Source of the DNA: Coniferiporia sulphurascens
Lineage: Eukaryota; Basidiomycota; Agaricomycetes; Hymenochaetales; Hymenochaetaceae
Direction: 5' to 3'
Length of the DNA stretch: 64,000 nucleotides
Assembly (NCBI GenBank): GCA_002794785.1
Contig: NBBA01000020.1
Coordinates: forward strand, 186,001-250,000
Shown here: piece by piece, positions 6,770-59,425 of the stretch
How the letters are laid out: each line of letters opens with the position of its first letter
Position numbering within the stretch: position 1 is the stretch's first letter
Translations under genes and position numbers: made by a program
Notes under the pieces: model-generated
What the model was told of the DNA's origin: nothing
The model's input: only the letters and a program-made list of their open reading frames with translations
Database searches by the model: none

Positions 6770-8676
6770 TCAGAACCTACTCGCGCGCCTCGTTTCACGG
6801 GAAGCCATCTTTTCTAAATTTATATAGGTCTGAAGCTGGTTCGTGCCTTCAGAGCTAGTCTGAGGCCGCTCCCAACCTTGCGTATTAGAGGTGCCAACCG
6901 GAAAATTCATGTTGGAAAACGTAGTTGGTCCATGTCCGGTTTCCGTTGTAATCTTCCGTAGGTTTGCGATCATTCGAGCTGTGATCACCGAGTGCAGGAC
7001 ACGCTGCGGTCTAATTAGAGCAGACGTTAGATTTTTTATTTCTATATCAGAATCGCGAATCCTTTACCCGACAAGAAGAAGGTGTAAGTTTCCCTATAAA
7101 ACAACCAGCCATCGATAAGTGACGGAAACTAGGCGTATTGCAAGGACACCAACATTTGATGGTCGCTGCCGGAGCCAGATAACAAGATTTGCCGTTGACA
7201 GTGCTATCAACCCGTATTCAGCAGAGCCCATGCGACACAATCATGAATATTTTAAATACCGAAGAGAAAAATGAAATACACCGCGCCTGATAGTTGTCGA
7301 TATCTCAGCAATAATGATTACTTTATGACAAACTGAACCTACCATCTCTAAAGAATACCACCAAGAGCCTGCTTATAAGACAATTCTCGTACCCTGATTC
7401 TGTATTAGCCACCAACGGCAAATGGAGAGAGTGACCGCACGAACAAAACCTGAAGACACCGAAAGTCAGAAGTAAAATAACTTTAGTTAAAATGTAAGTG
7501 CATAAATCTACGTCGAGGAACGAGAAAGGATTCACCACATTCAAACGCCATCAAGAAAGCGAACCCAATATATTCCGGCCTGATATTTTCGTTTGACATC
7601 AAGCATAGAGTGATTCCCGGAACGGAAGGGGCTTGAGGGACGTAGTATGTCAAGCCTTATCCCACCGACAAGTCTTTTTTTATAAACGTACTGGATACTG
7701 GGTTCCAAAGTCTGGCATACACGACGACCGCGGCTATGACCTCTATCTTTTCAGTCATTGTGAAAGAGCATGTGAGCGTTACCGATAAGGAAGTAGAACA
7801 GTTTCCTCACAAACAATAAGGATATTAAGACAAGGCCAATATACCGCTTACGTCCCCATAAGGCAAAGACACGGAGCGACATGATTACTTCGAATTGGGA
7901 CCAGTCAGATTAATGCTTATGATCTGACAAGAAGGAAGCGAGCTCACCTTCTGCTATTACGATACCGCCGAAAGTCAAATCTGGGGGATACTCAAGATCC
8001 ACGACTCACGCTTGCAAACTTTAGGAACGTACATGAATAAGCCCTCAAAATTTGGTTGCAACGCTATTACTCCCTTAAGATTTAGAGCCTATAAAGGTCA
8101 AACATAAGGCCACCACACACTTCTATGCCCAGGTCGGGATCGAGCAGATCTGTTGAGAAATCCAGTCAGGTAAATACAGGGCAAACTAGTGGGCTTTTCC
8201 CTTACAAACGAGGATCAACGTGAAATCTATAAATCCTAGATATCTTGTGGCGAGGAAAAGGAGTTTTCCGGAACTCCATTTCGATTGCCAAAAAAATGTG
8301 ACCTGAGCGGAAAAAAATCAAGTCTGAGTTCCAGAATTCTACTTTCAAAAAGGCGGATAATCAACCTCGTCGCCGAAAGTAATTAGGCACTCATACGTCT
8401 AAGCAGACAGTCATCAGGGCCAGCTGCTTCACGAGGGAACAGATAATGACACACCAGTAGACCAACGCTGGCAACTTAACGCAATAATATCGGGATTAGA
8501 CATTTAGCATACATGCACACGAAAAGGATATACGTACACATAGTATACTTCAGGGCACAAAGGAAAAAGGTGTGATGATGAGATTTTAAAGTCGGTGCAA
8601 CCAGAGAAAATGTGCTTGCCTGGACTGCGAAATTCTCTTTTACATCATTGGCAAATGGGTCGGTCATTTTATCCAT
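6770..8676 (-). CDS. DUF6533 multi-span membrane protein, copy a
   Basis: Function unknown; DUF6533 proteins are multi-span membrane proteins abundant in Agaricomycetes. Read through about 17 exons the frame stays open. Exon 1 (8620-8676, MDKMTDPFAND...AVQ) ends at a GC donor (GCAAGC). It is followed by a 10-nt microexon at 8538-8547 and a 20-nt exon coding VGLL, then TYECLITFGDE, VTFFWQSKW, LLFLATRYLGFIDF, YLTFGGIVIAE, the family signature LRVFALWGRKR, RPEYIGFAFLMAFEC, RLLVVFFRDG and PQRVLHSVITARMIANLRK. The tail is hydrophilic (SSEGTNQLQTYINLEK) and stops at 6770. The exon 12 donor is less clear than in the paralogues and may be displaced. Likely functional, but expression evidence is needed to exclude a young pseudogene. 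Confidence 0.72.
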
Positions 8677-9868
8677 GCTGCTGAAAGGCTTCTCGTAAAA
8701 GAAATATAAAGGGGAATGATCATGACCATGGTTTCCCAGTTTCCTTTATATCTAACCCGTTCTATTTTTGACAACGGACGAGTACCGCCGAAATACAACA
8801 CCTACAGGTTCAGCTCTAGGACTGGAGCGTGTATGTAACTGTATCGGTTTAATTATATTTTTCCGGGCTTGAGTCTTGGATGGGTGGTTGACTTAGATGA
8901 AGCGCGTCACTGAAAGGGTCTAATTAAAGAAGAAATAGCCAGAGGAAAGCGTCGTTCCTGCGCCGAAAAAGATTGGCTCGGGCCATCATTAGATATGAGT
9001 TTGACAGTTTACTCAGATGGAACAAACCTTTTGACCTAGTTCGTATCTAGGCCATAAACATTATGCCATCAGGCACCCTATCACAATCAGGGAGCTTATT
9101 AAATTGATTGAGCTAGAAGTACGAGCCCGAAGACTTGTGGATAAAATGGTTCAAAGGATACAAAGGGGGTTCGAATCACGAACTCAAGACATTCTGTAGT
9201 GCGTGTGATGTGATGAACCGGCGGGCCGCCGCCGCTCCATCAGATCCTCACAAAGTGCGACGCAATCTTCAGGAATCAGGTGTGGCTGAAACCGAAATTC
9301 TCACAGCCATTCGATACATTAGCAATGGGGCGTACCTACACCTTTACGCCGACCTTCATAACCAACCGCGAAGAGGACGTGAAGTTCCACAGGACCACAG
9401 GCAGTGCTGCAGTGAAATAAAGAATCAGAGATGATCAGTTGCGGCCGCACGGGCGGCACGGTAAGTATGCGTGAGAATATTAGCATATTCGGCAATTCAA
9501 TGCAAGTCTCTCGGTTCAATAAAATCGGCCGGGTATCTGAAAGCAATTACATACAATAAGAAATTACAATAAGAAGTGTCCTTCGACGGGGTACGTCGCA
9601 GAATAAAGAATCCATTCCTCATGCTCCTCTCCGGTAATACGACACACAGGTAACTTCTTATTGCACCGACCAAACTTCCACGGTGGCCGGACCATGCCCA
9701 TTAGCAAGTCATTTGTCAATTGTGACGGAGCGCCAGTTGACTTCAAGTTGGTCGACTGAGGATCCGATCTTGTTGCGAATAAGAGACTATCGGCCATTTT
9801 TAAAAATTCCATCAGATGCTTACCTGTGTAACTAATCCCGTTGTTCCCAGAGTCGTGTTCGTCGACAG
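8677..9868. other. Intergenic with unrecognised short ORFs
   Basis: Between DUF6533 copies a and b. Open frames of 75-99 codons lie at 9135-9434 (+), 9319-9546 (-) and 9564-9812 (-). None matches a family I know, and none could be joined into a longer gene. They may be relics or chance. Confidence 0.35.
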
Positions 9869-11732
9869 TTAGTCCAAATCTGCGGTGCCCACCGTACCGT
9901 TGAACTGTTCCTGGTCCGTCACTGTATTGATGTTACCTCTCGGGAATTCCATGGCAGTCAGAGTAACTTGATCTTGTGGGCTTGAACGAACTTCTCGCAA
10001 GTTCATGATCATTCGAGCCGTAATTATCGAATGTAAGACCCTTTGCGGTCTTTGTTTGTCGAGTGTCAGCTCCTTGCGTAGAAGTAAAGGGGCAATCAGC
10101 ACAGTCCTCACCCAACAAGGAGAACGTAGTAGTTCTTCTGAGATATAGTTTTATGGTAAATCAAGAGGAAAATAAGAACCGTTTGATCCTTACATTCAGG
10201 GGTTGCTCTCGGAGCCAAATGACAAAATTTGCCGTTGATAATGCTATTGAATCATCGCCATCAGTTTCTCTCAAATTGAAGGGCAGGTGATGTAGTACCA
10301 AAGAGGAATACGAAGTACAGCACACCTGGTTTTTGTGACGTGTCAGCTAGAAGCAGCAATCCAAGTCATAAACACTCGCCATCTCTGTAAAATTTCCCTA
10401 AAAGAGTGCTTTGTCGCAAGCTCTCGTGCCCTGTTTCTGTTTAAGCGGCTTTCTTACGACTAAAGGAGCAATGATCACGAACAGCATCTAGCTACCTTCC
10501 AGAGAGTCAGGAATATGATGACTTCGATTTACGTTAGTGTAAAAATGCGTATCCCTTCTGAGAATTGACATAAAACATTTACCACACTCAAAGGACATTA
10601 AGAAAGCGAATCCGACGTAAAACGCCTTAGTATTTTCACTAAGCGTCATGCAAGGGGGAAAGCCCGTGGAGGGGGGGACTAGAGCAATAATGAGTCTTTT
10701 TTCGTTGTCTTATTTTCTCCCGAGACGGCGTACAGTAGGTGGGATCGCCTGATTCGTAAGCAAAGACAAACTCCAGAAAGAACTCAGTCTGTTCATATTC
10801 CGCATTAATGACGAAGGAGAGCTTCAGCGTTCGGGCTACATATAGTAAACAATTTCTTACAAGCAAAAAGAACACCAAGACGATGAGGATGCGACGGGCC
10901 CGACCCCACAACGCATAAACGCGGATCGCCATAATAACTATCATAAAGTGTTAAGCTTATTAGCTTGCTGTAGCGGTCCATCAAGAGCGTATGATACCCA
11001 CTTTCAGCGACGACAATGCCGCCGAAAGACAAGTCTGGTGGACTTTCAGCGTGTGTGATCTATAAGCTCTGCTTCCCAGCCTCAATTACACACATGAATA
11101 TGCTTTCCAAAGTTTCCGGCAATTCTTTTGACCCACTCAATATCAGGAATGCTGGAGCTAGTAAAGTACGTACCTCTACGCTCGGGTTAGGTCCAAGTAG
11201 ATCTGTTGTTTCCATAGACGTTTGATCAGCGAAAGTCAACAGCGCAATTGTAAATGATGTGTCGGACAAACGAGCATGAGCAGACAATCTATGAACCCCG
11301 AATATCTCGTCACAAAGAATAGTAGCTTCCCGGCTCCCCACCCAGAGCGCCAAATGAGGCCAATCTAGGCAAAGCAAACGAATGCACGTTAGAGGCTAAT
11401 TACTTAAGAACCTAAAAGATTGAACCTCATCTTCAAGCGTGACCAAGCAATCGTATGTCTAAAGCAGATAGATGTACATCAGAGACGAGTCCTTTTATAG
11501 AGAGCATAGTTACGATACGCGGGACTCACCAATACGCTAACGCTGGCAACTAGGGGCAATATACGTTAGTCCTCGAAAATGTTCAACTAAATGCCTATAA
11601 GAGAATCTGCGTACACATGGTATACTTTGGGAGAAGCGATCAGGAACGAGCATACAAAAAAGCGCAAATGGAGAAAGCACTTGCCTGGACTATTTGGTCT
11701 TCTTCTATACCAGCGGAAATTGGGGGCAACAT
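9869..11732 (-). CDS. DUF6533 multi-span membrane protein, copy b
   Basis: Same gene architecture as copy a and in the same orientation 1.2 kb away. Exon 1 starts at 11732 (MLPPISAGIEEDQIVQ) and ends in a GC donor, GCAAGT. The microexon is 11615-11624. Later exons give TYDCLVTLEDE, IGLIWRSGW, LLFFVTRYSGFID, LSFGGIVVAE, IRVYALWGRARR, TEFFLEFVFAYESGDPTY (55 nt, as in the paralogues), FYVGFAFLMSFEC, VIIFLTLWKVARC, STLLGKFYRDG and PQRVLHSIITARMIMNLRE. The exon ending in YRDG also uses a GC donor (GCGAGT, intron starting at 10379), so this gene carries two GC-AG introns. Exon 15 runs 15 nt further than in copies c and d. No in-frame stop was found in the spliced reading. Confidence 0.75.
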
Positions 11733-13121: not shown

Positions 13122-14856
13122 ATGGCGCAGATACTCTACGATTACGCAGAAGATAGCCAAGTAGTCCGGGTGAGCACTGTTCTCTTAAATGCAAGTACGG
13201 TGTTAATCATAGACATCTTCTTCTATCTCTACAAAGTACACTACGTGTAGGTCGACCTCCCTTCCACAGCAATATGTAACGAGCATTGATGGTGCATACT
13301 GTCTTAGTCGCCAGCATTAGCCTGCTAGTAAGCGATTCCCTATCTTGTTCAATAGTGTCGTGGTCAAGTTTAATGATTGCCTAGACATACGAATGCCTCA
13401 TCACACTCAGCGACGAGGTGCTGACTTGTTTTTCTCTGTCTTCCGACATCGGCTAATCCCTACTGGGAAGGTTGAGCTTATCTGGTACTCAAACTGGAAC
13501 ATCGGAAAAATACTCTTCTTCGCGACAAAATACCCTGGGTTTATAGACTCCACGCTGATGCTCGTTTGTCAGAACGAGCTACCATTAGTCCTTCGATAAA
13601 CTCTGACCTTATGTTATTAAAATGTTATTACAAATGCAGATTTTCTGGACTCAGATTTGGACGGAAAGGTAAGTGTATAATTTGCCCATAGTGTTCAGTG
13701 TCCTTATTGTAACTTTATACGATAGCGATGCCTAAAAATTTCTGACACGTATTCGTGTAAATTGTCGCATCACTTGACAATAGGGAGGAGTTCTGATGCT
13801 TTATTTTCAAGATCTTGCTTTAAGCGGGATGGTAATTGCCGAAAGTACGCTCTAATACCTTACCCTGGTCAGATGTATGAATCTATACTGACAGTATGGG
13901 ATTTGCAGTGATCATGTCATTCCGTGTATATGCGCTATGGGGAAAGACGCGGCGCATTTTGATCTTTCTAATGTTATTGAGTCTTGTGAGAGTATCATGT
14001 CGCAACAATACTGGCAGTTTTGTACTTAAGTCCTTATGAAGGGTATAATCACGGCAGGACTTGTAGTATTCTCCAAGGATAACAATACAGTATACGGTGT
14101 GTCCCGGGATAATCACAAAATGTGTGGGGCTCACCTTTTCTTTAGCCGAGCACGCTCTAGCAGAGCTCAGTCCTTGCCTGGTAGTGTCTATTAATAGTAC
14201 CAAGCCAGATTACGTAGGATTCAGCCTGCTAATGGTCTTCGAGTGTGGTACCTCCATGCCTTTTTCCTTGGGGGAATTCAATCTGATCCATAAGCCACAG
14301 TTATCATGCTCCTAACAGTTTGGAAAGGAATAATACATTGTTCGCAAAGATAATCTTATACGCCAATCCACAACTTGAAGCACTAACGCTAGATTAGGGC
14401 GCGAAGACATGCATCAGAGTACTCTTTTGGCAGTGTTTTACAGGGATGGTGAGTGACGGGCTTGATAATCCGGGAATTCTGGCTAAGGTTCTGTTCTGAC
14501 ATCCAGGCGCATTATACTTCTTTTTTCTTTTCGGTATGTAATCAACTCTCTAGGCGAGTCAATGGAGAGCTAATGTGGCTACTATTTATCAGCTTTATCA
14601 TCCGCAAATTTTGCTATCTGGCTTCGAGTGCAGGCTCCAAATGTGGCTATCATATTTTCTAGTCCCAAGTTACCACTGACAATACCTTAGAAAAACTTCT
14701 ATGTCCTTCTTCTCGAGTGAGTAACAGAATGCTACACCAAATCCACGGCTGAGAAACCGACAACTATCATTTAGGCTGCAAAGGGTCTTCCACTCCATAA
14801 TTTCAGCTCGAATAGTCTTAAATTTGCGAGAAACTACGCTGCACGAACAAACTTAG
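13122..14856 (+). CDS. DUF6533 multi-span membrane protein, copy c, C-terminally truncated
   Basis: Starts MAQILYDYAEDSQVVR (13122-13169), then the microexon 13237-13246 and a 20-nt exon coding for ISLL. It continues TYECLITLSDE, VELIWYSNWNIGKILFFATK, YFLDSDLDGK, RCLKISDTYS, LALSGMVIAE, SFRVYALWGKTRR, PDYVGFSLLMVFEC, MLLTVWKGIIH, STLLAVFYRDG, ALYFFFLF and LQRVFHSIISARIVLNLRE. In the last exon codon 27 is TAG (14854-14856) where sister copy d has CAG, so the protein loses the last 67 or so residues of the hydrophilic tail found in d; without that stop the frame would run to a TGA at 14980. The membrane core is intact. The exon 5 donor is GTCAGA, weak compared with GTAAGA in d. It may be a truncated but working gene or an early pseudogene. 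Confidence 0.7.
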
Positions 14857-15406: not shown

Positions 15407-15408
15407 TA

Positions 15409-16448: not shown

Positions 16449-18405
16449 ATGGCGCAGATATTCTACGATTATGCAGAAGAAAGCAAAGTGGTCCAGGTGA
16501 GCACCGTTCTCATGTATAGATGCCAGTATGGTGTTAATTATAGATGTCTTCCCATCCACTCCCCCGGGCCTGCCTCTTCAAAGTACACTACGTGTAAGTC
16601 TACCTCCTTTCCATTGCAGTATACGGTAGACATTAATGGCACAGCTTGTATTTAGTCGCCAGTATCGGTTTACTAGTAAGCAACCACCTATCTTGTTTGA
16701 AAAAGGCGTAGCCTGAGCCTGTTGATTGTTTAGACATATGAATGTTTCATCACATTCGGCGACGAGGTGCTGTCCTGTTCTTCCGTGAAGCCTGTCCTCA
16801 AAAGCTGACCGATCCTTATTACACAGGTTGAGCTTATCTGGCACTCGAACTGGAATATAGGGAAAATCCTCTTCTTTGCGACAAAATACTTGGGATTTAT
16901 AGATTGTACGGTGATGCTCGTTTGTAAGAACAAGTTTCTACCGGTCCTTAGATAAGCCTTAAGTTCATCTTATGCAGATCTGCTGGACTCAAATTTGGGC
17001 GCACGGGTAAGTGTAGCCCGCTCTCGGCGTTAAGAACTCCAATTGACCCTTTTCCAATAGCAATGCAAACAGCTTTCTAATGCATATTCATGTAAATTAC
17101 ATTGACTGAGAAGAGGAGGGGTTCTGATGCCTTCTTTTCAAGATATAGCCATAAGTGGCATTGTCATCGCTGAAAGTACGTTCCAACATTTTATATCGGT
17201 CTGGATTATGTGAATTACGTATAAAATTTGAATCAACCTCGTGGAACTTGCAGTGATTATGTCCTTCCGTGTATATGCGTTATGGGGAAAGACACGACGT
17301 ATCTTCGTCACTTTGGTGTTCCTGCTCCTTGTAAGAAAAATGTCACTCCCTGTTGCAATGATGCTGATTGTTTCGTTACTTATGACCTCGCGAAGACGGA
17401 GGTTACAGTGGCAGTTGTAGTGTTCTCCAAGGACCAGCATCCTATATATGGTGTGTACCGACATAATCATAAACGTGTTGGACTCATTGTCTCTTCAGCC
17501 ACTCACACTCCAGAGCTTAGTAGCCCCTGCTTGTTACTATCCGAGAACACCAAGCCGGATTACGTAGGGTTCTCTCTGCTAATGGCCTTCGAGTGTGGTA
17601 CCTCTGTATTTCTTCTTCCTCTGATGAACATTTTGGTCTAATATATCTCATATAGTTATTATGCTCCTAACAGTCTGGAAAGGAATAATACATTGTTCGC
17701 ATAGATAATCTTATACGCTAATACACAAGCACTAATACTAGATTAGGGCGCGAAGACATGCATGAGAGTACTCTGTTAGCAGTATTTTACAGGGATGGTG
17801 GGTAACGGGCTCGATAATCTGGGAATTCTGGCTGAAATTTTGCTCCGATATCCAGGTGCATTATACTTCTTTTTTCTATTCGGTATGTAAATCAGCCATT
17901 TAAGCGAGCCGGTAAAAGGAAATGTAACCACTGTTTATCAGCCTTATCATCTGCGAATTTCGCTATTTGGTTTCAGGTGCATGCTTCAAATGTAGATATC
18001 ACATTTGATCATCGTCCCAAACTACCACTGATTATGTCTTAGAAAAATTTCTATCTCCTTCTTCTCGAGTGAGTAACAAAATGCGACACCAAATTCCAGC
18101 TGAGAATCCTATTTCCATCATTTAGGCTGCAAAGGGTCTTCCACTCCGTAATTTCAGCTCGGATTGTCTTAAATTTGCGAGAAACTGCGCTGCACGAACA
18201 AACTCAGCTTACGCTTACCACTGTTGAATTTCGTTGCGAAAATAACAGTGCGTCTGCTTCAAGACAATGTGGTGATCTCGAAAATGCGAAAAGAGGAATG
18301 CATCCGAGTCTGTCGTGGGTAAGCAGATCCTACGCATGGGCAACAACGACATCTGTCGCACAGGTCGGTGTTAGGATATCTCATGAGATTCCGGACCACA
18401 GCTGA
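16449..18405 (+). CDS. DUF6533 multi-span membrane protein, copy d (best-preserved model)
   Basis: Seventeen exons: 16449-16496, 16584-16593 (10 nt), 16656-16675 (20 nt), 16734-16766, 16827-16923, 16978-17006, 17061-17091, 17143-17175, 17254-17330, 17396-17450, 17499-17597, 17656-17694, 17747-17797, 17856-17882, 17942-17976, 18043-18068 and 18126-18405. They sum to 990 nt, exactly 330 codons, with no internal stop. The protein has MAQIFYDYAEESKVVQ, the DUF6533 core ASIGLLTYECFITFGDE-VELIWHSNW, KILFFATKYLGFID, IAISGIVIAE, MSFRVYALWGKTRRIF, PDYVGFSLLMAFEC and LQRVFHSVISARIVLNLRE. Hydrophobic stretches suggest six or seven membrane spans. The role is unknown; a receptor-like or transporter-like function would be speculation. 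Confidence 0.82.
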
Positions 18406-23459: not shown

Positions 23460-23517
23460 TTGACTCTACAACTAACGAAACAATTAACAAAATTATACAT
23501 CCTCGAATAATGAAACT

Positions 23518-28639: not shown

Positions 28640-28644
28640 GTTGC

Positions 28645-29900: not shown

Positions 29901-31740
29901 TCAGTTATCCCATACTCTTGAGCTATCAAAATCTTCAGAACCAGATGGTGCAGCGTGTTGGAATTCAAGGGTGGCGAGAGTAGTCTGGACTTGCTTGTCC
30001 GATGCTGCCTCACGTAGATTTAAGATCATGCGGGCCGTAATTATAGAATGAAGAGCTCGTTGCGGACTGTTTGTCGGCGGTGTTAGGTTTCGATTTACGG
30101 AAAAGCTTCGAGTTTTACTTACATCATTATAAGATTGTAGAAGTTTCCCTGAGTACAGTGTTAATAATTAGCACGAGCAGCGAAAAGAGCAAGTTGTCCG
30201 GCTGGAAAACATTCACATCAAAAATTTCGCCTGGCTTTCGAAGACAGATGACGAAGTTTGCTGTGGTCAGAGCTGTTGGATCGGCCGGGAACCTTCAGCG
30301 GTTTTCTTTTTAGTGATTGAACTGTTTCCCGTACCAAAAAGCAACACAAAGTACAGCGCGCCTGATCGCCACCACTGGTGTAAGTAGGGTTATCGGTTGA
30401 GTAATATAACACCCACCATCTCTGTAGAATGTCGTAAAGAGTGAGCCTTGATTCCCGCGTTCACTCCCTGATTCGATGTCAGCATTACCACCCAGAGGAT
30501 TCAGCAACGGACCCAACAGTATGCGACGCCCTTCCAGAATGTCATGAGCATGACAGCTACAACTTAAGTGTGAGGACGAATGAAGAGCCCATAGAGTGTA
30601 TGAGGACATACCAAACTCGAAGACCATTAGCATACCAAATCCTATGGAATTGGGTCTGGTGTTGATGTGCAAAAGAAGGCATGGCGGGAGGCCCGGAGTG
30701 GGCGATGCTATGAGGTCTGTCAATATCTTATGTAATGATGAAAAGTTTGGTGCACACCGAATAGGAGATCCTCTCCCAGGACAAGCACGGCAATTGTCAC
30801 GAGAAAACCGACCTTCGCAAGACCAAAGTGAAATGGAGTTCATTATACAATAAAGCAAAGAAGGGCCAAGCCTCACTGATAAAATTGACGCAAGAAGCAG
30901 GAGGATACGTCGTGACTTCCCCCATAGTGCGTATACACGAAGTACCATGATGACTGCCGATTAGGAAGGTGTTATAAATAATCTGCGTTTCATACGTTTT
31001 GGGCGTACCCTCGGCGATGACGATGCCACATATGGATAAGTCTGGCGGAGCTTTAGTCCTCATCACATCCATATACACGTACAGGTACTCACAGTTGTGT
31101 ATGTGATAGAGCTCTTTACATCGCTATTTTCCTTGATTAAAAACGTATACTTGAGACGTAACATTCGCACATACTTGGATGTCCAAACCTGGTTTGATGA
31201 AATCTGTGACGTTGGAAGTAATACGGTTAAAAAGAAACCCAATAACTAAGAACCGCTAACAACTAACAAACTAATGCGGTAGTGGATGCCGCAAAACCCA
31301 GATATCTTGTCGCAAAAAATAAGATTTTTGTGCTGCTCCATTTCGAGTACCAAACAAGGTCAACCTGGACGGAAAAGTAAATGAGTGCTCGACTTGGACA
31401 ACGGGAATTTGCGGTAAACCTCTCCACTGAACGTAATCGCATAGTCATATAGCTTGAGATATGTCGTAAGATATACTATGGTCTAATTTATAGAGTACGT
31501 GACCTACTAGCAACCCAGCGCTGACAACTGGGATGCAATGTACAGTACACATCAACAGGACCGCTTCGTGAGAGAGAAAGAAAGCTGCTCACACGAAGAA
31601 TACTAAAAAGCAGTCGAACGATTAAGCGTGATTGCTTAAGGGAGATAATCAAAAGGGCTGACTTGGATAGCTTGACTTTCTTCCGCGTATACGACGGATG
31701 TACTACGCAGTACCTCCAAACTTGTCGCGGCAAAAGCCAT
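29901..31740 (-). CDS. DUF6533 multi-span membrane protein, copy e
   Basis: Starts at 31740 with the longest N-terminus of the set (MAFAATSLEVLRSTSVV, then YAEESQAIQ). The microexon is 31593-31602 (TATTCTTCGT) with good TTTTTAG and GTGAGC borders. Further exons give VSAGLL, LYDYAITFSGE, VDLVWYSKWSSTKILFFATR, YFIKPGLDIQ, RCKELYHIHN, LSICGIVIAE, VLRVYALWGKSRRILLLLAS, GFLVTIAVLVLGEDLLFG, NSIGFGMLMVFEFG, AVMLMTFWKGVAY, SLFTTFYRDG, ALYFVLLFG and PQRALHSIITARMILNLREA. The tail ends GSEDFDSSRVWDN at 29901. All checked junctions keep frame. Exon 15 is extended by 21 nt relative to copies c and d. It is the nearest DUF6533 copy to the right of the retrotransposon. Confidence 0.77.
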
Positions 31741-32599: not shown

Positions 32600-33990
32600 G
32601 TGATGCCATCAATAGAGGCCAAATATCGGACCACCATCACGCAGGAGCGTATCTAGCTGAGTTATCCTCACGTTAATAACTTGAACCATGAGCGACGCTT
32701 TTCCAGAGCTTCGGAGGAACGCATAAGGTGCTTTGAAATTTGAGGGAAGACGTACCACACTCAAAGTGTCAAATTCAACAGGATACAGTGAAAGGAGGAT
32801 ATGAGATGTGAAAGGATATCTGTATGTAAAGTAGATCATTAGATACGTCTTCTAGATACGTCGCCACTAATCGCACTCCCTGGCTTTGGACCATCAAATT
32901 CAGAATAGCTCGCCGCATTGATCGGAGGTCCACGAACTTCCATGAAACCCGTCTATTTAAGCGTGGTACCGGATGACGGAGTGGACATTCAGCGGGAGAC
33001 GCTGAAGATTTTTACGTTAAGTTACGTCGTGACTTTTGGGAAGTCATTCCGGCACCACCCATTTTCTGAAAGGGGGGTTGAAAAAAGCTTTAGCGCAAAA
33101 AAAAAACTTACAAACAAACGGTGCATCATTTTTGTAGCCCTACAGTATGGGAGTAAGTGGAATTTTTAGAAAAGGAGATGCGATGCCGAAAATACCGATG
33201 CGACCTGGAGGGAGTATCAACCGCTTTTCTCAGAATATTAATACGCAACACAGATGACTTTTGATCGAGTGACTCCGCTTACTTGAGCATATATCATAGG
33301 ACTATATCGCAAAGCAAACTTCGTGTTCACGTGGAGAGATATTGCACGGGTTACATACATGTATACACATCACCAAGCTGCTTGCACTGCTGAATTCCGC
33401 ATGAAGTCTAGGAGTCAGGGGATTACATAAGAAGTTGCGCAACGTACCTGTCTACCCCGGTCAGATTTGACTACTAGGTCTGTAATTCAAAATAATACGT
33501 AAGTACAACATAACAGAAGGATGACCGTTTTATCTGACAAAGGAGCCCGGCCATAGAAGTCACAAGTCCCAAATATCTTGTCGCAAAAAAAATCTTTCCA
33601 GAGATCCATTTGGAATACCAGATGAATTAACCTGACGATGAAAGTAAACGAGCGCCAAAACTAAGTGTGAAAAAATAAAAAGCTAACCTCCTCGCTGATC
33701 GTAATGAGGTAGTCATATACCTGAAAAACAAAGCCAATCATGACTAAATCGTATCTTTCGGGGTAGAAAGTGAGTTACCAGTATCGCAATGCTGGCAACT
33801 AGTGATTCCAACACAAGCTAGCACCGAGGTTCATGTGTTGAAGACATAGTTTCTCGTACATGTCGTATACTTCAGAGCAAAAAAAAGATCAGGTTCTGTT
33901 CAGCAAGTGGAATAGTTAATTTGCTTACCTGGACTATTTGGCTCTCCAGACCTCTGCGTACTGAACAACCTCATATAACGATTTTGATGT
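32600..33990 (-). pseudogene. DUF6533 family copy f, frameshifted
   Basis: Retains the family layout in part: an exon ending in codons for QIVQ with a GTAAGC donor, the microexon at 33860-33869 (TATACGACAT), a 20-nt exon coding IAIL, and VYDYLITISEE. The next exon, which should read NLIWYSKW-SGKI-FFATRYLGL, has lost one base near its start plus a codon, so the frame breaks. No ATG lies in frame with exon 1. I could not find the RVYALWG exon, while the FECGT and LLRDG exons remain near 32750 and 32640. The 3' limit is approximate because the last exon was not found. Confidence 0.65.
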
Positions 33991-44000: not shown

Positions 44001-47000
44001 CCTCATTGTCCAACATAATGGCGTCGTTCTCTTGCCGAGACTGTACCGCGCGTAAGACGTGTTCAGTAACACCGAGAAGACTCTCGAAGGCCATAAACTT
44101 TATCCACGGTATTACTCTCGAAATCTAAACAGACCGATAGGTTAGCGTCGGCGCTCGGGTAGAATGCACAAGATAGACTCACGTCATACCCCGCAAAAAC
44201 ATCCGCTCTGCTTTTCATCAATGCTGTCCAGTGCTCACAGATGGAGGACACCAAAGAGCGATCAGCATCTTCAGTGTGAACCAACATAATCTCCATTAGA
44301 TGGTCCAGTGCTATCATATGGAGAGTCAGCATTCCGAAAAACAGACCTCGACCAAGTTGAGATTCACCTGTCACCACGGAATTTGACACATTGCTCTCAC
44401 AAGCGAGTACTTTGATATTAGGTCTCTCCAATATGACGTAGGTTTTAAACGCGGAGAAGTCTTGTGGGTTAAGGCCTTTTTTAGCACGAGCGGCCACAAT
44501 GGCCAAAGCATTCAGAACGCAGTCATCGTGACCGGAACGGGTTTGAGCAGATAGACGATGAAGAACAGTACCGCCGATATTCTTGTAAGCGTGCAGAGAA
44601 TTCCGGCCTCTCTGCAGGGTCTCGTTCAAAATGCGTGCACAATCAGGCAACTCAAATGATTCTGAAGGTGTGTGAAGGAGCAGCCATTCCACCGAAACCC
44701 TACAGTTCGAACGAATGGGCATGAGCAAAAAAATGAGGATCGCGACCACTTACCTCGCTGCAAAATCGTCCCCCTTGACTGACCACAGGAAACCAGAATC
44801 AGGATTCAGATATAGATAGAAATCAGCTAGAGCCGGTGGATAGAGATTTTTGAGCACGACAACGAGACGGTCAATCAGTTCGGCATTCAAAGGTTGATTA
44901 ACCAAACGTAGCCAGTCGATCAATTCATATGCTTGAGCCGCAGCCGAATCATTATCCGCTAAACGAAGAACAAGTGAATGGCTATTCGTTTGGTGACAAA
45001 TTTAAATGACTGGACTTACGATATTCGAGTGACTCAATCTGTGAGACGAACTGGTATACCACCTCTGGAGGGGATGCCTCCGTTCGGTCTTCCGGTACTT
45101 TTGAGGAGTTGCGAACGATACACGCGTCCAGAATTCTTATCTCCTTCTTCAGAGCGGCAGTAATTATGGGATGCATCGCAAAAATTCGTTCTTCAGTCAT
45201 AATCGTGGCGAGGCTTGTCGCAATAGCCTTAAACGGCAATGCATCAAACTGTTTCCCAAGCAGGCTTACAGTGACTTTCCGAATGTACGTCGTCAGGGCG
45301 AGAACATCTGACGGGGATAATAATGCACTTCGCATTTTTGCGCCAAGTTGCTCGAGGACGGTCATCATTAAAGGACTGATGTTCGTCAAATGCGATGCGT
45401 CCGCGACAATCCCTGCAGGAGGTAACGAAGATTGCAAAAGAGTCTCAATATCCTCTAAGTAGCGATGTGGCGTCTTCGCACAGCGCTGCATGCATTCATC
45501 CAGGAAACCAATAACGACTTCACACTCGTCTGTGAGCGGTGTACCATCAGGCGCTTCCACACCAGGAGACCGAATGCTTTGAGGTAACGCTTCAAGCCAC
45601 AGCTGTAGTTCTTCCGGGTCGTGCTGAAACAAAAGGCTGTCCTTCAGCGCTTGGGTAAGGAGAGACGTGAGCGCCTCTCGGATGGCTCCGTGTTTTGTCT
45701 TGTTGAAGAGCTTCAGCAAAATGAAAACGTTCGACGGAGTCGATGGGGCTGAGGGATAGATTGAACATCAGAACATCGCGCATTTCCACAGGGGGTTATG
45801 AAAAATCACCTGCTTTCCCTGACCAAACAAACTGGTCGCTCTCTTTCAACATCCTCAGGATGTGGAGTTGCTGAAGCCGATCTAAGCCCTGAATATCAGT
45901 AGGGATGTTCGCGCTCTGGGTTTCGTGGTCCAAGAAATTCTGTAGCGACTTCCCAACGTCATATCTTGCTTCCGCCACAAGGGAAGGCACGCAACGGTGA
46001 TATAACCAAAGAAGGCGCTGCGAAAGCTCAGATAGCATTGCCAACCTTGCGATTTGCGAGGGTTGCTCCGTCGATCCGCCGGTACGGTGTGCGTTGGAAA
46101 AGGCGATTATGACCTGAAACTCCGGTACGCGTTTGCGAACTTCCCGTTCGACTTCGATTCTCCGCTTCGTCCACTGCCCCTCGATCTCGTCCTCTTCCAG
46201 TGCTTGCTCGACCTCACGGAATGCGTCACGAACCTCTTCGCACTTGCGCAAACACTGAGCGAGAGCAAGGCCCGCAGCGTGCTGCACAAGCGCAGATGGC
46301 GCCTGGAGTGCTTTTGAAATGTGAATTTTCAAGTTTGTAGACGGAATAATGTTTTCGATAATTGTTGCCAGAGGAGGCGGTGAGGGCTGATATGCGTACT
46401 GTGCAGGAGTGGACGAAGAGCCCGCAGTGCCTGCGGGTAGGTAGAAGCTCTCGGTTGGGACGGGTAAAGAGACTACAGCGGAGACAAATGCGATGTTTGC
46501 TAGCCATTTGGAGGATAAGCGCGGCTCAAGTGTCAGCCCGGCAGATTGAAGATATCCCGAAACCAACTCAGGGCATGCGTGGAGAATCTTCAAAGCCAGT
46601 TCCTGCTGGCGGGCATCGTCATTAACTTTTAGCATTTTCAGTGTGTTGGCAAGAATCTTATTGTAAACTTTTCCGCCTTTGTGTGTAACTTCAGAGCCAT
46701 CATCGTGTCTGGGGTACCATCCGTTATCTGAAAAGCAAATCCCGACCCCTCTATGCGTGCAGATCGCCAGGAGGAAGTGGTGTACTATGTCGGCAGGGAC
46801 GTGTTCAGGATCTGACCCTTCTTGAGTAGATCGTTCGTAAAGTTTGAGTAGCTACAAGTAGTCAACAGTTAGGAGAAGTAGAAGCGCGACTGAAGTAAGA
46901 ATAACGTACATGTTGAACAGTCGTCTCGCCAAACAGTCCGATTTTAAGAGTTCGTTTTACTTTTGGGGCCTGCCAAAGGTCCTTCCAGAGTACTTCAAGT

Positions 47001-49905: not shown

Positions 49906-51799
49906 CTAACTCTTCCCATATTTCTCCCAACCAACTTCCTCAATTTTGGCGATCTTTGCGTGCACTTCTTCCTCCTGCTTCTTCATGAACTCATCCATCG
50001 CCTGTAAAAGAGACGGAACGCTTGTTCCAAGGATGCGGACCGCGAGCAGTGCCGCGTTTGTACTGTTGTTAATCGCGACGGTCGCCACCGGGATGCCTCT
50101 CGGCATCTGTACAATGCTGTGTAGGGAGTCCACCCCATCGAGCACACTCCCCTTGACAGGCACGCCGATGATGGGCAGCGGCGTCATCGCTGCAAGCATT
50201 CCAGGAAGATGCGCTGCACCGCCTGCACCCGCGATAATCACGCGCAGGCCTCGTGCCACCGCGTTTTGTGCGTACGTCGTCAGGCGTGCAGGCGTGCGAT
50301 GTGCGGAGACCAGCGTCAGCTCGTACGGCACGCGGAATGCGTCTAGCACACGCGCGGCAGCAAGCATCACGGGTAAATCGCTGTCTGAGCCCATGACGAT
50401 GCCCACAAGCGGTTGCGCGGCCGACTGCCCGGACCCGGCTTCTGGGATGACGGGCACGTAGAAGTCGGTTGATGCGGGCGTTGCATCAGGGAGAGCCTGT
50501 AAAAGCGGTCGGAGGCGTGTGCGCACGGCAGCGTCGGAGTCGCCGACGAGCGTGATGTGTCCCATTTTGCGGCCCTTTCGGCACTCGCGCTTGCCGTATA
50601 GGTGGATCGCTGCACCAGGTGTTTCGAGTGCAACGCGCGACACACGGGTGATATCGTCCATAGAATCGGAGTAGCCGAGAAGGTTGAGCATAACGGCACT
50701 CTGCACTTTGAGAGCAGTTGAGCCGAGCGGTAGAGATAGGATAGCGCGCAGGTGATTCTCATATTGGGACGTGTAACAAGCCTCTATCGTGTAATGACCG
50801 GAGTTATGCGGTCGAGGGGCGATCTCGTTGATGAGGAGGGTGTCTGTCTGAGGCGTAAATAGAGGATATCAGGGAAGAAAAGACAATACTCGCCATCTTC
50901 CAAGAGAAACATTTCCACACCGAAAATCCCCGCACCAGTAAACGTCTTTACCGCATCCTCTGCAAGCCTACAGGCTCGAGATGCAACATGTGGATTCGAG
51001 TGATGGAAGGGTGCGAAAACCAGGTGGCAAATGTTGTCCTTGTGTACAGTTTCGACAACGGGATAAGAGCGAACATCACCTGTGGTAGTGCGAACAACCA
51101 TGACCGCTACCTCCTTCGCCAACGGCACCATACGTTCAGCATATAGTGGTCGCCCTCCTAGCGCAGCAATTGCCTCCTTGGCCTTGGTAAGGTCCGACAA
51201 AACGTAGTTTCCCCGCCCGTCGTATGCCATCGTTCGGCTCTTCAGCATTAAAGGTAGCCCTAGCTTCACTCCTGCGATCTCCACGCTCTCTTCTGATGAA
51301 TCAACCTGGATATAGTCTGCGACAGGCAGGTTACGGCTGAAGAGGTGACGCTTCTGTACGAGCTTGTCCTGAATAATACGAATTGTCGATGGGCTTGGGT
51401 GCACCTCGATGCCAGACGACTTCTCAATTTCTTCCAAAACATCCACATTGACATGTTCGATCTCCACCGTCAATACGTCCACTTTCGCTGCAAGTTCACG
51501 GATTTTTACTGGATCGGAGAAAGCGCCATCGACATGTCCAAGGTCGGCAGGTGAAGATACGACTTGTTTGGCCGGAGCATGTTCACCGACATCGAGGATG
51601 GCTACATCGACGTTAAGCAAGGACGCAGACGCTGCTAGCATCCGCCCGAGCTGCCCGCCGCCTGGACATTCATATCAGGAAAATTGCCGAACATCATCAA
51701 ATTAAACCTGCAAACAAAAATCAGAAGTCGAGATCTCTTCCCACTTTTTGTAGAAATAAACGCACCCCCACCTAGTATCCCGACTCTCCGCTTGTCCAT
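49906..51799 (-). CDS. ADE2: Phosphoribosylaminoimidazole carboxylase (ADE2)
   Basis: Purine synthesis step from AIR to CAIR. Three exons: 51772-51799, 50894-51661 and 49906-50843, 1734 nt (577 residues), the fungal length. The N-terminal half is PurK-like ATP-grasp: [77 protein letters not shown]. The C-terminal half is PurE-like: [41 protein letters not shown] and [14 protein letters not shown]. The first donor is placed at CTAG|GTGGGG because only this gives LGGGQLG. The second intron (50844-50893) starts GCGAGT and must be GC-AG to keep the frame. Loss of ADE2 gives red pigment in yeasts. Confidence 0.95.
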
Positions 51800-52667: not shown

Positions 52668-54213
52668 TCAAAGGGCTGTACGCCTTCTTTTCACCGAGAC
52701 GATTACATCCTCTCCGCGGACAGACGGCGTACCAAAGTTCTCCTCCGTCCAAGCCCCTTCTGCGCCCACGCCGTCAATACCCTTGACGCCCTCCTCTAGG
52801 CCCCCTACGACCTCTATATCATACTTTTCCATCCACGTCTTCAGCACAAGGTCGAAGATGAGTATTCGCGCGAGCTTCTCACCGGGGCACGCATGTACCC
52901 CTAGTCCGAATTGCACGAACTCAACGCGACGGAACCAGTTCGCATACGCGTCCGGATCATCGAGGAAGCGCGAAGGGTCCCAGCAGCTCGCGCTCGCAAA
53001 CACACCTCCCGCGTCCTCGCGTTCCGTGCGTTGCGTCGCGAGCGGCGAACACGCGACGAGCGTGCCCGCCGGGACAGAGTGCCCCACGATGTCCGTTGTC
53101 TGCGTTGTCATGCGCATCACGGTTGTGTTTGTGTAGAGCCGTCCGGTTTCGCGCAGGCACGCGTCGAGGAATGGCTTGCGCTCATCAGACGGAAGGACCG
53201 CCTCTTCGCGGATGCGGTCCAGGGCGCCTGGCGTACGACGCGCATGGAGGTAGAGCCAGGGGATCGTCATCGCCGCATTGGCGTGTCCGCCGAAGACAAG
53301 GCTCATGATGTGCAAACCGTAGCAAGGGGCGAACCTTTCTCCGAGCTGCGAAAGGATAAAGTAAAGGTAGTCGCCGCGGTCTTTGTGCTTTTCAGGGTTG
53401 TCAAGGATATCGCGCAACTCCACTTCAATAATCGCGTCAAAGCGCTTACAGACTCTGAAGAGAGATTTTCCTGGCCCCGTAAACTTCCATAGCGACCAGG
53501 GCGTCACACGCAGAATGGGATGCTGTAAGTCGCGCTCGAATTGTGCCATGAGCGGAGTTAACTCGTCCCCGTATCTCCGATAGAAATCCTCTCCGCCCAG
53601 GATCACAAGCAAATAGGCGATGATAAGGTATGAGAAACTCCTGAATAGCGGAACCTTCCCTTGCTTTGTCCATTTTTCGAAGTGTTCCTCCGTAAGCTTG
53701 GAGCAGTCGGATGCATAGCCATCCAGATGCTCTTGCTTCAGCAGAGCAACTTTGACTAATTTGAAGCTTGCCTGGTTCCATCCCGGATAGTCAATCACTG
53801 AATGAAGACGAACATGAGCAACGGGGCCTTCGACAAGCGCACAAAAACTCACTGTGGCTGATGGTCGGACCCATAGACCATTTGATCTGCTCGAAAAAGC
53901 TGAGCCTATCCTCCGACGCCCGTAGAACCTCCTTATTCCCTTCTGTACCCAAAGCAAATACAATCTTCACGGCGAAGAGGTCCACGCAGAAAACATCGCC
54001 GAGCTTTTTACGCGTCCTGCGCAAAAACTCGACAGGATCTTTTCCATACTCGACGGGGACACGTAGACGCTCAGCCAGCGAGTCTTCACCAGCGTAAGGA
54101 ATGGAGGGTGAAACGCGTGTCGTGAACTTGTGGGCGGCGTACGCAATGCCTGCGACAACGAGCGTCGGTAATATTAGTGCGTACGACGTGATCTTGGGTG
54201 GGAAGGCGTCCAT
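52668..54213 (-). CDS. Cytochrome P450
   Basis: Haem-thiolate enzyme, ER-anchored. Two exons, 53853-54213 and 52668-53797, 1491 nt (496 residues). Residues about 10-28 form the membrane anchor (YALILPTLVVAGIAYAAH). The haem loop is FGLGVHACPGEKLAR, the K-helix has ETGR (ExxR), and WDPSRFLDDPDAY lies in the meander region. The I-helix reads FGGHANAAMTIPW: the usual acid-threonine pair is absent and the stretch resembles the QAN/HAN type of CYP7 and CYP8 proteins. Substrate cannot be predicted. Start ATG at 54213 is the only one before the anchor. It sits beside a MITE, away from any biosynthetic cluster gene that I can see. Confidence 0.92.
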
Positions 54214-54388: not shown

Positions 54389-54796
54389 CAGGGGGGTACC
54401 AAAAGTGTTGCACGCCCCATATTTGGGAGGACCCTACCGATGAATCGGGTGTTGTGAAATTTGCCCCAACCTCACCTTCAGTAGTGCGATTTTAAGGCTA
54501 AAAAATTAAACTGTAACCTCAAGCTTGCTGCTGTTCATATTTTCCAATGTGTAGTCCATTCTGATTCATTAATGCCTTGTGCATATACAAGGTCATACAC
54601 CAGATGCTTGAGCTCAAAAGCCTATGACAAATCGTTTATTCATCGCTAGTATCTTAATACTCCGCTCTAACCGATTTAACACTTCGTACACTTTATTAGA
54701 AAATTTTACAGAGGCGAGCTTATGTGGGGTAATGCCCCGATAAATCGGAAGGGTCCTCCCAAATACGGGGCGTGCAACACTTTTGGTACCCCCCTG
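54389..54796. mobile_element. MITE with about 60-bp terminal inverted repeats, TA target site
   Basis: The 408-bp element begins CAGGGGGGTACCAAAAGTGT; the right end is the inverted copy (...TTGGTACCCCCCTG). The repeats run on through TTGCACGCCCC(A/G)TATTT, GGGAGGACCCT(A/T)CCGAT and further, with few mismatches over about 60 bp. TA flanks both ends (54387-54388 and 54797-54798), as in Tc1/mariner-like elements. There is no coding capacity. Confidence 0.88.
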
Positions 54797-54798
54797 TA

Positions 54799-56912: not shown

Positions 56913-57368
56913 TTGATCCTACAAAAACCGACTTACTTCCCCGCACTGCCTTTTCTAGACCGGACGAAGGTTAGCAACTCAATGAGAGAGGAATCGACTT
57001 CAAGTGCAATTAAATCTAACAGTCCAAGTTGGCAATTTATTCTGTCCCACTCGCTGGCGACTATTCTCGAATTCCGTCTTGTCCTTCGGTTAATGAACCT
57101 GTATTTGCAATCGACATTCGCCTTCGTGACGTTAATATATCCGGAAGCTGCATGGAAAGCTTCTGCGAATCCGGACTACTTATGTATCGCACGATACCAG
57201 ATTAGACCGGCGAACTTTGAATTTAATATTCGGCACTGGCATCTCGGACCCACGTACGTATATAATCCGTGCAAGTTTTCCTCACGAATCCTCCACCCAG
57301 CGACTATATCTGACGGCAGTGCTTGCTTGCCGGAGTGTGTCATCGCCTGGTCCGGGATTACGGCATGA
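56913..57368 (+). other. Unassigned open frame, possible membrane-protein fragment
   Basis: A 151-codon frame. The segment WQFILSHSLATILEFRLVLR resembles the membrane-proximal C-terminal segment of multi-span fungal proteins of the DUF6533 kind. There is no clear start exon, and the rest is not conserved in any family I know. It may be a gene relic upstream of DUF6533 copy g. Confidence 0.25.
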
Positions 57369-57588
57369 AAAGTTTATGGTCGTCTGTAAACAGCGAATTG
57401 GCACACTGCGATTGCGGGGCCGATTCGGGGTTCATGCGGAGCACTGGAGAAGCCATCTTACCCCTTGACCCGAGAATGGAATAGAACCAAGTATAAAGGA
57501 GGTCCCTTTCGACGCGCAAGTAGTCGGGCGTCCCCTTCTGCGTTTCTTCCCGAGGGCCCTTCACCTGTGCAGCTGGGGCTGAAAAATT

Positions 57589-59425
57589 ATGCATGCAATC
57601 TCTGATTACACCAAGGAGGATCAGGTAGTCCGGGTCGGTACTCTCCTTCGTCCTTCGTGACAATTGTCTGGAGATGACGTTTCCTCAATCGTTTTTCCTG
57701 TAGTATACGGCGTGTAGGCGTTTTCTCTTTGTTCTACGTTAATACGAGTTATACTGACGCGCCCGACTTCAGTTATTAGCATCTCATTGTTGGTAAGTGT
57801 CCAATTGTTTTGTCAGCTCGAGCTATGGCTGAGTGGCAAGTTCAGGTATATGATTGTCTCATAACGTTCGGCGATGAGGTCTATTCCCACGACTGTTCTT
57901 TCAGGCGAAGCTCTCTTCTAACTCAATCGCGTTACTCAGGCTGAGCTCATCTGGGGTTCCAAATGGAACTATGGGAAGCTCCTATACTTCGCAACGAAGT
58001 ATCTGGCATATATAGATAGCATCATGATGCTGGCCTGTTTGTCTTAACGTTCCCCTCTCTTTCGACCCCTCCCTGACTATGCCATTGCAGACCTACTCGA
58101 TCATAACATGGAAGCGCAGGTATGCAATTGATTTCGGTATAACGTACGTCAACCTTAATGTTACGGAGAACAATAGCGATGCAAGCAGCTTTCCTTAGCG
58201 TACTCATGTAAGTCATGAGGCTCATGTTTAAAGTTAGGAATGCTAATATTTTATTAGACTTGACTGTGAATGGCGTTGTTCTTGCTGAATGTAGGTTTGC
58301 ATATAACCTAACCCGGGCTTGGCCGCGTGTCGTACGTGTGACTGACGAATTGCGATCTTCAGTGGTCATGGCATGCCGCGTATATGCACTGTGGGGAAAG
58401 TCACGGCGTGTCCTCGTCCTTCTATCGTTTCTCATGATCGTGAGAATTGCCCCTCTTCTTGGCTGCGCGGATACTGAGAGGTTCCACACCGTTCAGGCAG
58501 AGGTTATAATAGCACTCATCATTTACACAGTTGATCATCGTATGGTATATGGTGGGTGCTTGAACTACATATGATTACTTCGATATTTTATTATCCTTTC
58601 AGCACCACCCACCCCTGACTTCCCGCCTTGTTTGATGCTGCGCCAAAACAACAAGCCGGCATACATCGAGTTCGCTCTACTAATGGTCTTCGAATTTGGT
58701 ACTTCCGATTTCTACATTTTCTTGGAAATATGTACTGAGGCTTTTATTGCAGTGGTCATGCTCCTTACGTTCTGGAAAGGATTCGAGCAATGTATGCACC
58801 GCAATTTTGTGTCTTTAAGTTGATATGTATCTCATGTCTAATCAGGGCGAGGACCCTCACGTCGGAGCACGCTTCTGGAGATATTTTATAGGGATGGTAA
58901 GTGTCGATGTCAACCGGAACGTTTCGTAGCTAATACTCTGTTCAGGCGCACTGTACTTCTTTTCTCTCTTTGGTACGCGAAACAATTGCATCCATCAGAG
59001 AAAATCGCTTAGTCTCCTGTCCCTTAATATTCATTAGCGTTTTCGACGGCAAATTTTATCATTTGGTACCGATCGCGTCCTATAAACGTCAGTATCTAAA
59101 CAATCCGCTTTCTCAGCTTCCCCGGTTCGTTGATTGATCACCGGTTCATGCTCCAGGGAAATTACTCCGTTTTTCTTGTCGAGTAAGAAAGAAAGACGCA
59201 ATTCTAGCACTATCGATTTGACTGACATAATCTGGATGCAGGCCGCAACGGGTACTTCACTCCGTTGTTACGGCGCGTATGATTCTAAATTTGCGGGAAA
59301 CGGCCTCGACTGAGGAGGGGACTGATATTGCGCTCACCAGTCTCAACTTTCGGTGCTGCAATATCGTTTCGTCGAACTCGGGGTGGCCCTTCGGAACGGA
59401 AAGCAGTTTGGAGGAGGACCTTAGA
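57589..59425 (+). CDS. DUF6533 multi-span membrane protein, copy g
   Basis: Isolated member about 24 kb from the main array. Exons: 57589-57633, 57704-57713 (10 nt), 57773-57792 (20 nt), 57846-57878, 57940-58036, 58091-58119, 58177-58207, 58258-58290, 58363-58439, 58497-58551, 58603-58698, 58753-58791, 58846-58896, 58946-58972, 59038-59087, 59157-59182 and 59242-59425. They sum to 903 nt, 301 codons, without internal stop. The protein reads MHAISDYTKEDQVVR, ISISLL, VYDCLITFGDE, AELIWGSKWNYGKLLYFATK, YLTVNGVVLAE, ACRVYALWGKSRRVL, AYIEFALLMVFEFG, STLLEIFYRDG and PQRVLHSVVTARMILNLRET. The exon-15 donor is displaced to GTCAGT 15 nt beyond the position used in copies c and d. The tail is shorter than in copy d. 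Confidence 0.82.

What the first reader, a model, noticed from the sequence alone, without database searches (positions are those of the whole stretch)
6770..59425. Hidden family of seven DUF6533 genes sharing a 10-nt microexon and near-invariant exon lengths
Simple ORF scans show only fragments, yet copies a, b, c, d, e and g resolve into the same roughly 17-exon gene. Exon 2 is a 10-nt microexon in all seven copies, including broken copy f (8538-8547, 11615-11624, 13237-13246, 16584-16593, 31593-31602, 33860-33869, 57704-57713; consensus TAYNCTNNRT), followed by a 20-nt exon. Later exon lengths repeat (33, 97, 29, 31, 33, 77, 55, 96-99, 39, 51, 27 nt). Models d (990 nt) and g (903 nt) sum to exact codons. 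A microexon kept across paralogues on both strands implies selection for recognition of a very small exon, and it means automated annotation will truncate this family.
Basis: partly seen in the sequence, partly recalled or inferred. Interest (0 to 1): 0.88.

Follow-up and report, generated by a model that had tools for sequence, protein, structure and literature searches.

The report
Ten- and two-nucleotide exons in DUF6533 genes
A large family of membrane-protein genes in one mushroom-type fungus carries an exon of only ten letters in most of the copies examined, and a sister branch carries an apparent exon of just two letters, so such genes are easily misread by annotation software.

Summary
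All seven window copies have a 10-nt exon 2 between short introns. In the five window copies tested it codes the first residues of Pfam DUF6533. The seven are part of a 32-copy array, C20:136-370 kb: 27 of 32 read the 10-nt exon in a first scan, 32 of 32 with a family profile and GC donors allowed. Of 61 DUF6533 genes examined genome-wide, 46 have it (45 with an AG acceptor), in clades only 21-33% identical. Among these 46, an AG-10-GT segment occurs in 45, against 4.0 from shuffles and at most 12 for any other length.

The inferred selection for small-exon recognition is not supported: flanking signals are not stronger overall (intron 1 has the weakest acceptor, intron 2 marginally the strongest), and the 10 nt are no more conserved than other exons. 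Splicing of short introns plus coding constraint suffices. Ultrashort exons are known in plants and fungi; this is a new, unusually large family-wide case. No transcript or second species could be tested.

The parts
8538..8547 (-). copy a, exon 2, 10-nt microexon (intron 1 has a GC donor)
11615..11624 (-). copy b, exon 2, 10-nt microexon (intron 1 has a GC donor)
   Evidence: missed
13237..13246 (+). copy c, exon 2, 10-nt microexon
16584..16593 (+). copy d, exon 2, 10-nt microexon
31593..31602 (-). copy e, exon 2, 10-nt microexon
33860..33869 (-). copy f (broken gene), exon 2, 10-nt microexon
57704..57713 (+). copy g, exon 2, 10-nt microexon
6770..8667 (-). copy a, 17-exon gene model (exons 15-16 uncertain)
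9869..11732 (-). copy b, 17-exon gene model (last exon start uncertain)
13122..14856 (+). copy c, 17-exon gene model, early stop compared with d
16449..18405 (+). copy d, 17-exon gene model, 990 nt with stop
29901..31740 (-). copy e, 17-exon gene model (start codon and exons 14-16 uncertain)
33448..33972 (-). copy f, broken: exons 1-4 readable, decays afterwards
57589..59452 (+). copy g, 17-exon gene model (exons 15-16 uncertain)
16656..16675 (+). copy d, exon 3, 20 nt; restores phase 0 after the 10-nt exon

Best explanation
Exon 2 is a real, constitutively included coding exon of 10 nt in a large paralogous family of DUF6533 membrane proteins, probably with seven helices. It encodes three residues plus one base at the start of the first membrane helix. 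Its two flanking introns, 50-89 nt where measured and with ordinary GT(GC)-AG ends, are recognised one at a time across the intron (intron definition), so the exon needs no special recognition. Loss of the exon breaks the frame, so ordinary purifying selection on the protein keeps its length and phase through duplications. The same process, an intron lying a few bases from another intron, explains the 2-nt exon of the sister branch and a single 4-nt exon in locus L055. Shown here: position, phase, length, paralogue-wide retention, frame dependence, and splice signals that are not stronger than those of other introns overall. Inferred: that the transcript includes the exon, that splicing is constitutive and sequential by intron definition, and receptor-like function.
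For: 10-nt exon in 46 of 61 examined DUF6533 genes, including 32 of 32 in the array with the family profile. Length 10 specific: 45 of 46 versus 4.0 expected. In the six submitted models that contain the exon (window a, b, d, e, g and one array copy), PF20151 matches from profile position 1 at exactly the first residue coded by exon 2. Relatives read the same stretch joined to a neighbour: L011, L017 and L025 have no AG directly before it (no intron 1 there) but keep intron 2 at the same residue and phase; L021 and L022 run straight on into the exon 3 part (no intron 2). Skipping gives a stop within 90 codons in 29 of 31 array models. Third codon positions vary most in exon 2 as in the other exons. 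Identity between the two clades that carry it is only 21-33%, so the arrangement is old.
Against: No RNA evidence. The first array scan read the 10-nt exon in 27 of 32, not 32, and the profile for the second scan was built from those models. One array copy (C20:357774) has no AG before the 10 nt. L055's exon was found by eye and has a weak donor, GTCGGG, and an AAG acceptor. Removing the three residues in frame does not lower the Pfam score (53.9 versus 52.8 bits), so Pfam alone does not prove them. On the tree the 10-nt class needs two changes, and only 2% of bootstrap trees put it on one side of a branch. Of 32 array models 19 carry a frame break, most of them near the 3' end, and one a stop: model error or pseudogenes.
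Confidence: 0.85

Rival explanations
1. The 10-nt exon is a regulated switch: inclusion gives the receptor, skipping gives a frameshift and nonsense-mediated decay, so the cell can silence the family by splicing.
For: 10 is not a multiple of three, and skipping gives an early stop in 29 of 31 array models. Intron 1 has the weakest mean acceptor of the ten introns compared, with AAG in 20 of 30. A regulated microexon is reported for Trichoderma Xlr2 (PMC11121469; passages read).
Against: No extra conserved nucleotides were found in the exon and intron 2 scores well. Any exon not a multiple of three behaves the same when skipped.
Confidence: 0.08
2. Special selection keeps splicing signals for recognition of a very small exon.
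For: Exon length is fixed in 32 of 32 array copies and in distant paralogues. Intron 2 has, by a small margin, the highest mean acceptor score of the ten introns compared.
Against: Exon nucleotides are no more conserved than other exons; intron 1 has the weakest acceptors; donors, branch-like motifs and median lengths lie within the range of the other introns.
Confidence: 0.05
3. Exons 1-2 are not coding: translation starts further downstream and the 10-nt match is inherited non-coding sequence.
For: No transcript evidence. Only 23 of 32 array models begin exon 1 with ATG.
Against: PF20151 begins at the exon 2 residues in the six submitted models that contain them. Codon-position bias is present in exon 2. 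Relatives read the same residues joined to a neighbouring exon.
Confidence: 0.02

Closest known systems
Conserved microexons of 15 nt or less in land plants (PMC8831610; abstract, outline and passages read)
   Same: Ultrashort coding exons, kept over long times, often misannotated, merged with neighbours when a flanking intron is lost.
   Different: Those are clusters conserved across plant species with RNA evidence; here they are paralogues in one fungal genome, without RNA. That paper reports strong intronic splicing signals around microexons; here signals are not stronger overall.
Single-nucleotide exon of CYP621A in Fusarium (PMC12940212; first of three parts of the text read)
   Same: Ultrashort exon in a fungal gene family inferred from phase mismatch, supported by a relative without the introns.
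   Different: 1 nt in orthologues of one P450 with RNA reads; here 10 nt in 46 paralogues and 2 nt in 10 paralogues, no RNA.
Microexons of 2-10 codons in Phanerochaete chrysosporium P450 genes (PMC1184071; passages read)
   Same: Small exons and short introns in a large, clustered basidiomycete gene family.
   Different: There spread over the P450 genes and not restricted to any P450 family; here one exact position kept in most of the genes examined.
Cryptococcus neoformans exons down to 1 bp (PMC3990503; passages read)
   Same: Basidiomycete with very short exons, annotated with RNA-seq.
   Different: No family-wide conserved ultrashort exon appears in the passages seen.
SNB1 of Coprinopsis cinerea (PMC10949477; abstract start and passages read)
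   Same: DUF6533, predicted seven membrane helices.
   Different: Described there as a highly conserved gene required for fruiting-body patterning; relation of the array copies to snb1 not tested.

Membership tests
PF20151 DUF6533 | Match to the curated profile above its cut-off of 24.1 bits | tested here: met
   50.5-56.0 bits for the six full or partial models submitted (window a, b, d, e, g and one array copy; c and f were not submitted)
PF20151 DUF6533 | Profile covered from position 1, which includes the residues of exon 2 | tested here: met
   matches start at profile position 1 at the first exon-2 residue in 6 of 6 such models
Seven-helix membrane protein (as reported for SNB1) | Seven hydrophobic helices | tested here: inconclusive
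   Kyte-Doolittle: 7 segments in d, 6 above the same cut-off in g; no structure prediction made
Microexon (internal exon of 15 nt or less) | Short segment between GT(GC)-AG introns that is needed for the reading frame | tested here: met
   one of 46 lacks the AG
Microexon (internal exon of 15 nt or less) | Included in mature transcripts | not testable with these tools
Evolutionarily conserved microexon cluster (plant sense) | Same exon in orthologues of other species | not testable with these tools
Regulated (alternatively spliced) microexon | Inclusion differs between conditions | not testable with these tools
   no RNA data
SNB1 / snowball family | Orthology to C. cinerea snb1 | not tested

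The most novel reading that the evidence does not exclude
One receptor-like gene family has accumulated and kept, through dozens of duplications, several frame-critical ultrashort exons at different sites (10 nt in one branch, 2 nt in another, 4 nt in one gene). These act as a family-wide splicing gate: accurate removal of two neighbouring introns is required for any functional product, so expression of the whole array can be set by splicing efficiency.
Probability: 0.07. Interest if true: 0.78.

Novelty: new member of a known kind. Interest (0 to 1): 0.5.

Why it matters
It gives a large natural series (46 genes with a 10-nt exon, 10 with a 2-nt exon, 5 with neither) in one genome, in which the splicing of ultrashort exons can be compared between paralogues. 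It also gives a simple rule for correcting gene models of a basidiomycete membrane-protein family that includes a fruiting-body regulator. If transcripts confirm the 2-nt exon, it would be among the shortest exons known to be kept across a gene family.

Tried and rejected
Protein homologues from other fungi: the database was switched off, so orthologues could not be examined. Scans of genome contigs and viral contigs with a 55-residue class II peptide gave 214 and 24 pattern matches but no relative. Solved structures: best E 0.64, nothing related. Literature: searches for DUF6533 and for PF20151 or IPR045340 gave the same two papers. Searches for microexon with basidiomycete, intron definition and fungi, mushroom, gene family, and Basidiomycota and for 1-nt or 2-nt exons showed none about this family in their listings (one search listed 15 of 26). 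One search (short exons) listed 15 of 24; one search listed 5 of 1,233 and was uninformative because the combination was too broad.

Considered and rejected: that the 2-nt exon is an aligner patch for a frameshift. The aligner does make such patches: isolated 2-nt exons also appear in four array models (164941, 175909, 313208, 319417), and I give those no weight. In the sister branch it sits at one position in 10 of 10 loci between a YAG acceptor and a GTRNG donor, expected at 0-3% per locus in shuffles (0.5-8% if only GTR is asked). Four of ten loci have no single-intron alternative within the scanned range (donor -15 to +12, acceptor -12 to +9); the other six have some, with weak donors, none shared by more than four loci. 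Considered: nested introns (stwintrons, recalled from memory); not needed, because each intron has complete ends of its own. Structure prediction was not attempted, because a spliced protein is not given letter for letter by the window DNA.

Rows dropped: copy f was left out of the tree, the intron and exon statistics and the identity comparison. L051-L056 (short pieces) were left out of the tree and the identity comparison. C20:357774 was left out of the skipping test (no exon 1 in its model). Aligner models with frame breaks were kept.
Full report
WHAT WAS CHECKED. The window is C20:186001-250000 of an unnamed 39.3-Mb genome in 31 contigs. I rebuilt c and d by exact search for GT-AG chains with the stated lengths. 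I then wrote a splice-aware protein-to-genome aligner that has no knowledge of exon lengths. With copy d as the only query it returned the 10-nt exon in a, c, d, e, f and g but not b. Intron 1 of a and b begins with GC; with GC donors allowed and a family profile, all seven have the exon. Exact chains give open 17-exon models for a, b, c, d and e. The 3' exons are less certain. Copy f decays after exon 4.

THE FAMILY IS LARGER. PF20151 has 100 listed matches in this genome. Scanning C20:130001-382000 on both strands gave 32 genes between 136 and 370 kb, seven of them in the window; 27 of the 32 models held a 10-nt exon in that first pass. With a profile built from those models and GC donors allowed, 32 of 32 have it. 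Exon 3 is 20 nt in 30 of 32. Exon 4 is 33 nt in 32 of 32 when the seven genes with exons 4 and 5 fused (130 nt) are counted as 33 + 97, and exon 5 is 97 nt in 30 of 32. In the two copies with a 24-nt exon 3 the aligner used a 4-nt frame break there. One copy, C20:357774, has no AG before the 10 nt.

Outside the array I examined 29 more loci: 23 of the 30 loci returned (the other 7 lie in the array) and six small stretches. Fourteen have the 10-nt exon: L002, L003, L006, L007, L009, L015, L018, L026 and L051-L056 (L055). The aligner itself found it in six of these (L018, L051-L054, L056). In seven it had trimmed the N-terminus, and a search for AG-10-GT upstream of exon 3 found exactly one candidate in each. 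L055 was found by eye. Ten loci have the 2-nt exon described below, and five (L011, L017, L021, L022, L025) have neither. Total: 46 of 61 with the 10-nt exon, 45 of them with an AG acceptor. L021 and L022 are near-identical. 61 is only part of the family.

IS IT MORE THAN CHANCE. For the 46 genes, an AG-n-GT segment lying 45-75 nt upstream of exon 3 is present in 45 for n=10; for every other n from 1 to 30 the count is 0-12. Dinucleotide shuffles give 4.0 for n=10. The genes are related, and eight of them were recognised by this very pattern, so this is not 46 independent tests. The 32 array genes were not chosen that way. Array paralogues have median identity 0.45, and the two clades that carry the exon share only 0.21-0.33. 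Even the first codon of the exon is not fixed: Y, F, L, C, I or V. What is kept is length and phase.

WHAT THE EXON CODES. It enters in phase 0, codes three residues and leaves one base; exon 3 restores phase 0. PF20151 starts at profile position 1 on exactly the first of these residues in the six submitted models that contain them (c and f were not submitted). Deleting the three residues in frame does not lower the Pfam score, so Pfam shows where the residues lie rather than proving them. Better evidence comes from relatives. L011, L017 and L025 share intron 2 at the same residue and phase but have no AG directly before the ten bases, so these are read on from upstream coding sequence. L021 and L022 read the ten bases straight into the exon 3 part, so intron 2 is absent; an AG does stand directly before them, so intron 1 may be present there. 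Skipping exon 2 gives a stop within 90 codons in 29 of 31 array models. In copy d the residues sit in the first of seven hydrophobic segments; g shows six at the same cut-off. SNB1, a Coprinopsis DUF6533 protein needed for fruiting-body patterning, is predicted to have seven helices (PMC10949477, passages).

IS THERE SPECIAL SELECTION FOR RECOGNITION. I compared ten introns across the array models, f excluded. Intron 1: median 60 nt, donor 5.27 bits, acceptor 3.41 bits, the weakest mean acceptor. Intron 2: median 58 nt, donor 6.53, acceptor 4.94, marginally the highest. The other eight: medians 50-68 nt, donors 1.07-7.73, acceptors 3.96-4.89. Mean pairwise identity of the exon is 57%; eight other exons 53-72%. 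Codon third positions are the most variable in exon 2 (0.48) as in the others. Short introns recognised across the intron explain inclusion; this step is inferred (intron definition in fission yeast is recalled, and seen only as a reference title).

A SECOND, SHORTER EXON. In L004, L005, L008, L012, L014, L016, L020, L024, L027 and L028 the aligner placed a 2-nt exon at the same position; I grouped these loci by that feature. In 10 of 10 it stands between an intron of 53-82 nt ending in YAG and an intron of 52-73 nt starting GTRNG. The first intron has a GT donor in nine and GC in one; the second ends in AAG in seven of ten. The two bases plus the first base of the next exon make the residue before a cysteine present in all 21 rows shown, which cover both classes and the five other loci. 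The 5' edge is at the place and phase of intron 6 of the 10-nt class; the second intron, 2 nt further, is extra. Shuffles give a YAG-NN-GTRNG arrangement in 0-3% per locus, and YAG-NN-GTR in 0.5-8% (the motif was chosen after seeing the loci). Removing both introns and the two bases as one intron shifts the frame. In-frame single-intron alternatives within the range scanned are absent in four loci; in the other six they use weak donors and none is shared by more than four loci. The ten copies span 23-62% identity. Against it: no RNA, and the same aligner also put isolated 2-nt exons into four array models, which I take as patches. L055 also appears to have a 4-nt exon before intron 4; this rests on one gene.

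HISTORY. A tree of 54 proteins (copy f and L051-L056 not included) puts the 10-nt genes in two clades, with the 2-nt genes plus L021/L022 (weakly placed, 83/65) and the group L011/L017/L025 between or beside them. The 10-nt label needs two changes. The starred branches do not rule out one, but only 2% of bootstrap trees show it as one side of a branch. Shared position and phase favour one origin with later loss of intron 1 or 2, but the deep branches are not firmly supported (97/78).

COMPARISON AND NOVELTY. Plants have conserved exons of 15 nt or less, often missed by annotation (PMC8831610, abstract and passages). Arabidopsis has a 1-nt exon (PMC4674806, abstract and opening). A 1-nt exon in Fusarium CYP621A was published in 2026 with RNA support (PMC12940212, first of three parts of the text). 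Cryptococcus exons go down to 1 bp (PMC3990503, passages), and Phanerochaete P450 genes have small exons (PMC1184071, passages). The kind is therefore known. What I did not find in the listings is a description of these exons in DUF6533 genes, or of a 2-nt exon kept across a fungal paralogue family. The library holds open-licence papers only.

LIMITS. One genome, no RNA, no named species, no second species. The count of 46 uses models; 19 of the 32 array models carry a frame break, most of them near the 3' end and at least two in exon 3, and one (c) a stop.

Noticed in passing
L004, L005, L008, L012, L014, L016, L020, L024, L027, L028: Apparent conserved 2-nt exon before a conserved cysteine in a sister branch of DUF6533 genes, 10 of 10 copies.
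   Followed up: yes
L055 (C15:915350-916130): Apparent 4-nt exon before intron 4 and loss of intron 3, next to a 10-nt exon 2; one gene only.
   Followed up: partly
C20:136-370 kb, including the whole window: Array of 32 DUF6533 genes on both strands; seven consecutive minus-strand copies (157-182 kb) have exons 4 and 5 fused.
   Followed up: partly
window 8620 and 11685: Intron 1 of copies a and b starts with GC instead of GT.
   Followed up: partly
array copies, intron 4: Intron 4 donors are mostly far from consensus (e.g. GTTTTC; mean 1.07 bits against 5.2-7.7 for the other nine introns compared), yet the position is fixed and seven copies lack the intron.
   Followed up: no
window 24865-28239: Copia-like retrotransposon fragments (integrase, pol and reverse transcriptase domains; the Copia label is my reading) between copies d and e.
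   Followed up: no
window 4275-5681, 35720-36499, 41761-46635, 50784-51641, 52668-53963: Other genes before and among the array copies: mannosyltransferase, amidohydrolase, Npa1-type ribosome-biogenesis gene, ATP-grasp enzyme, cytochrome P450.
   Followed up: no
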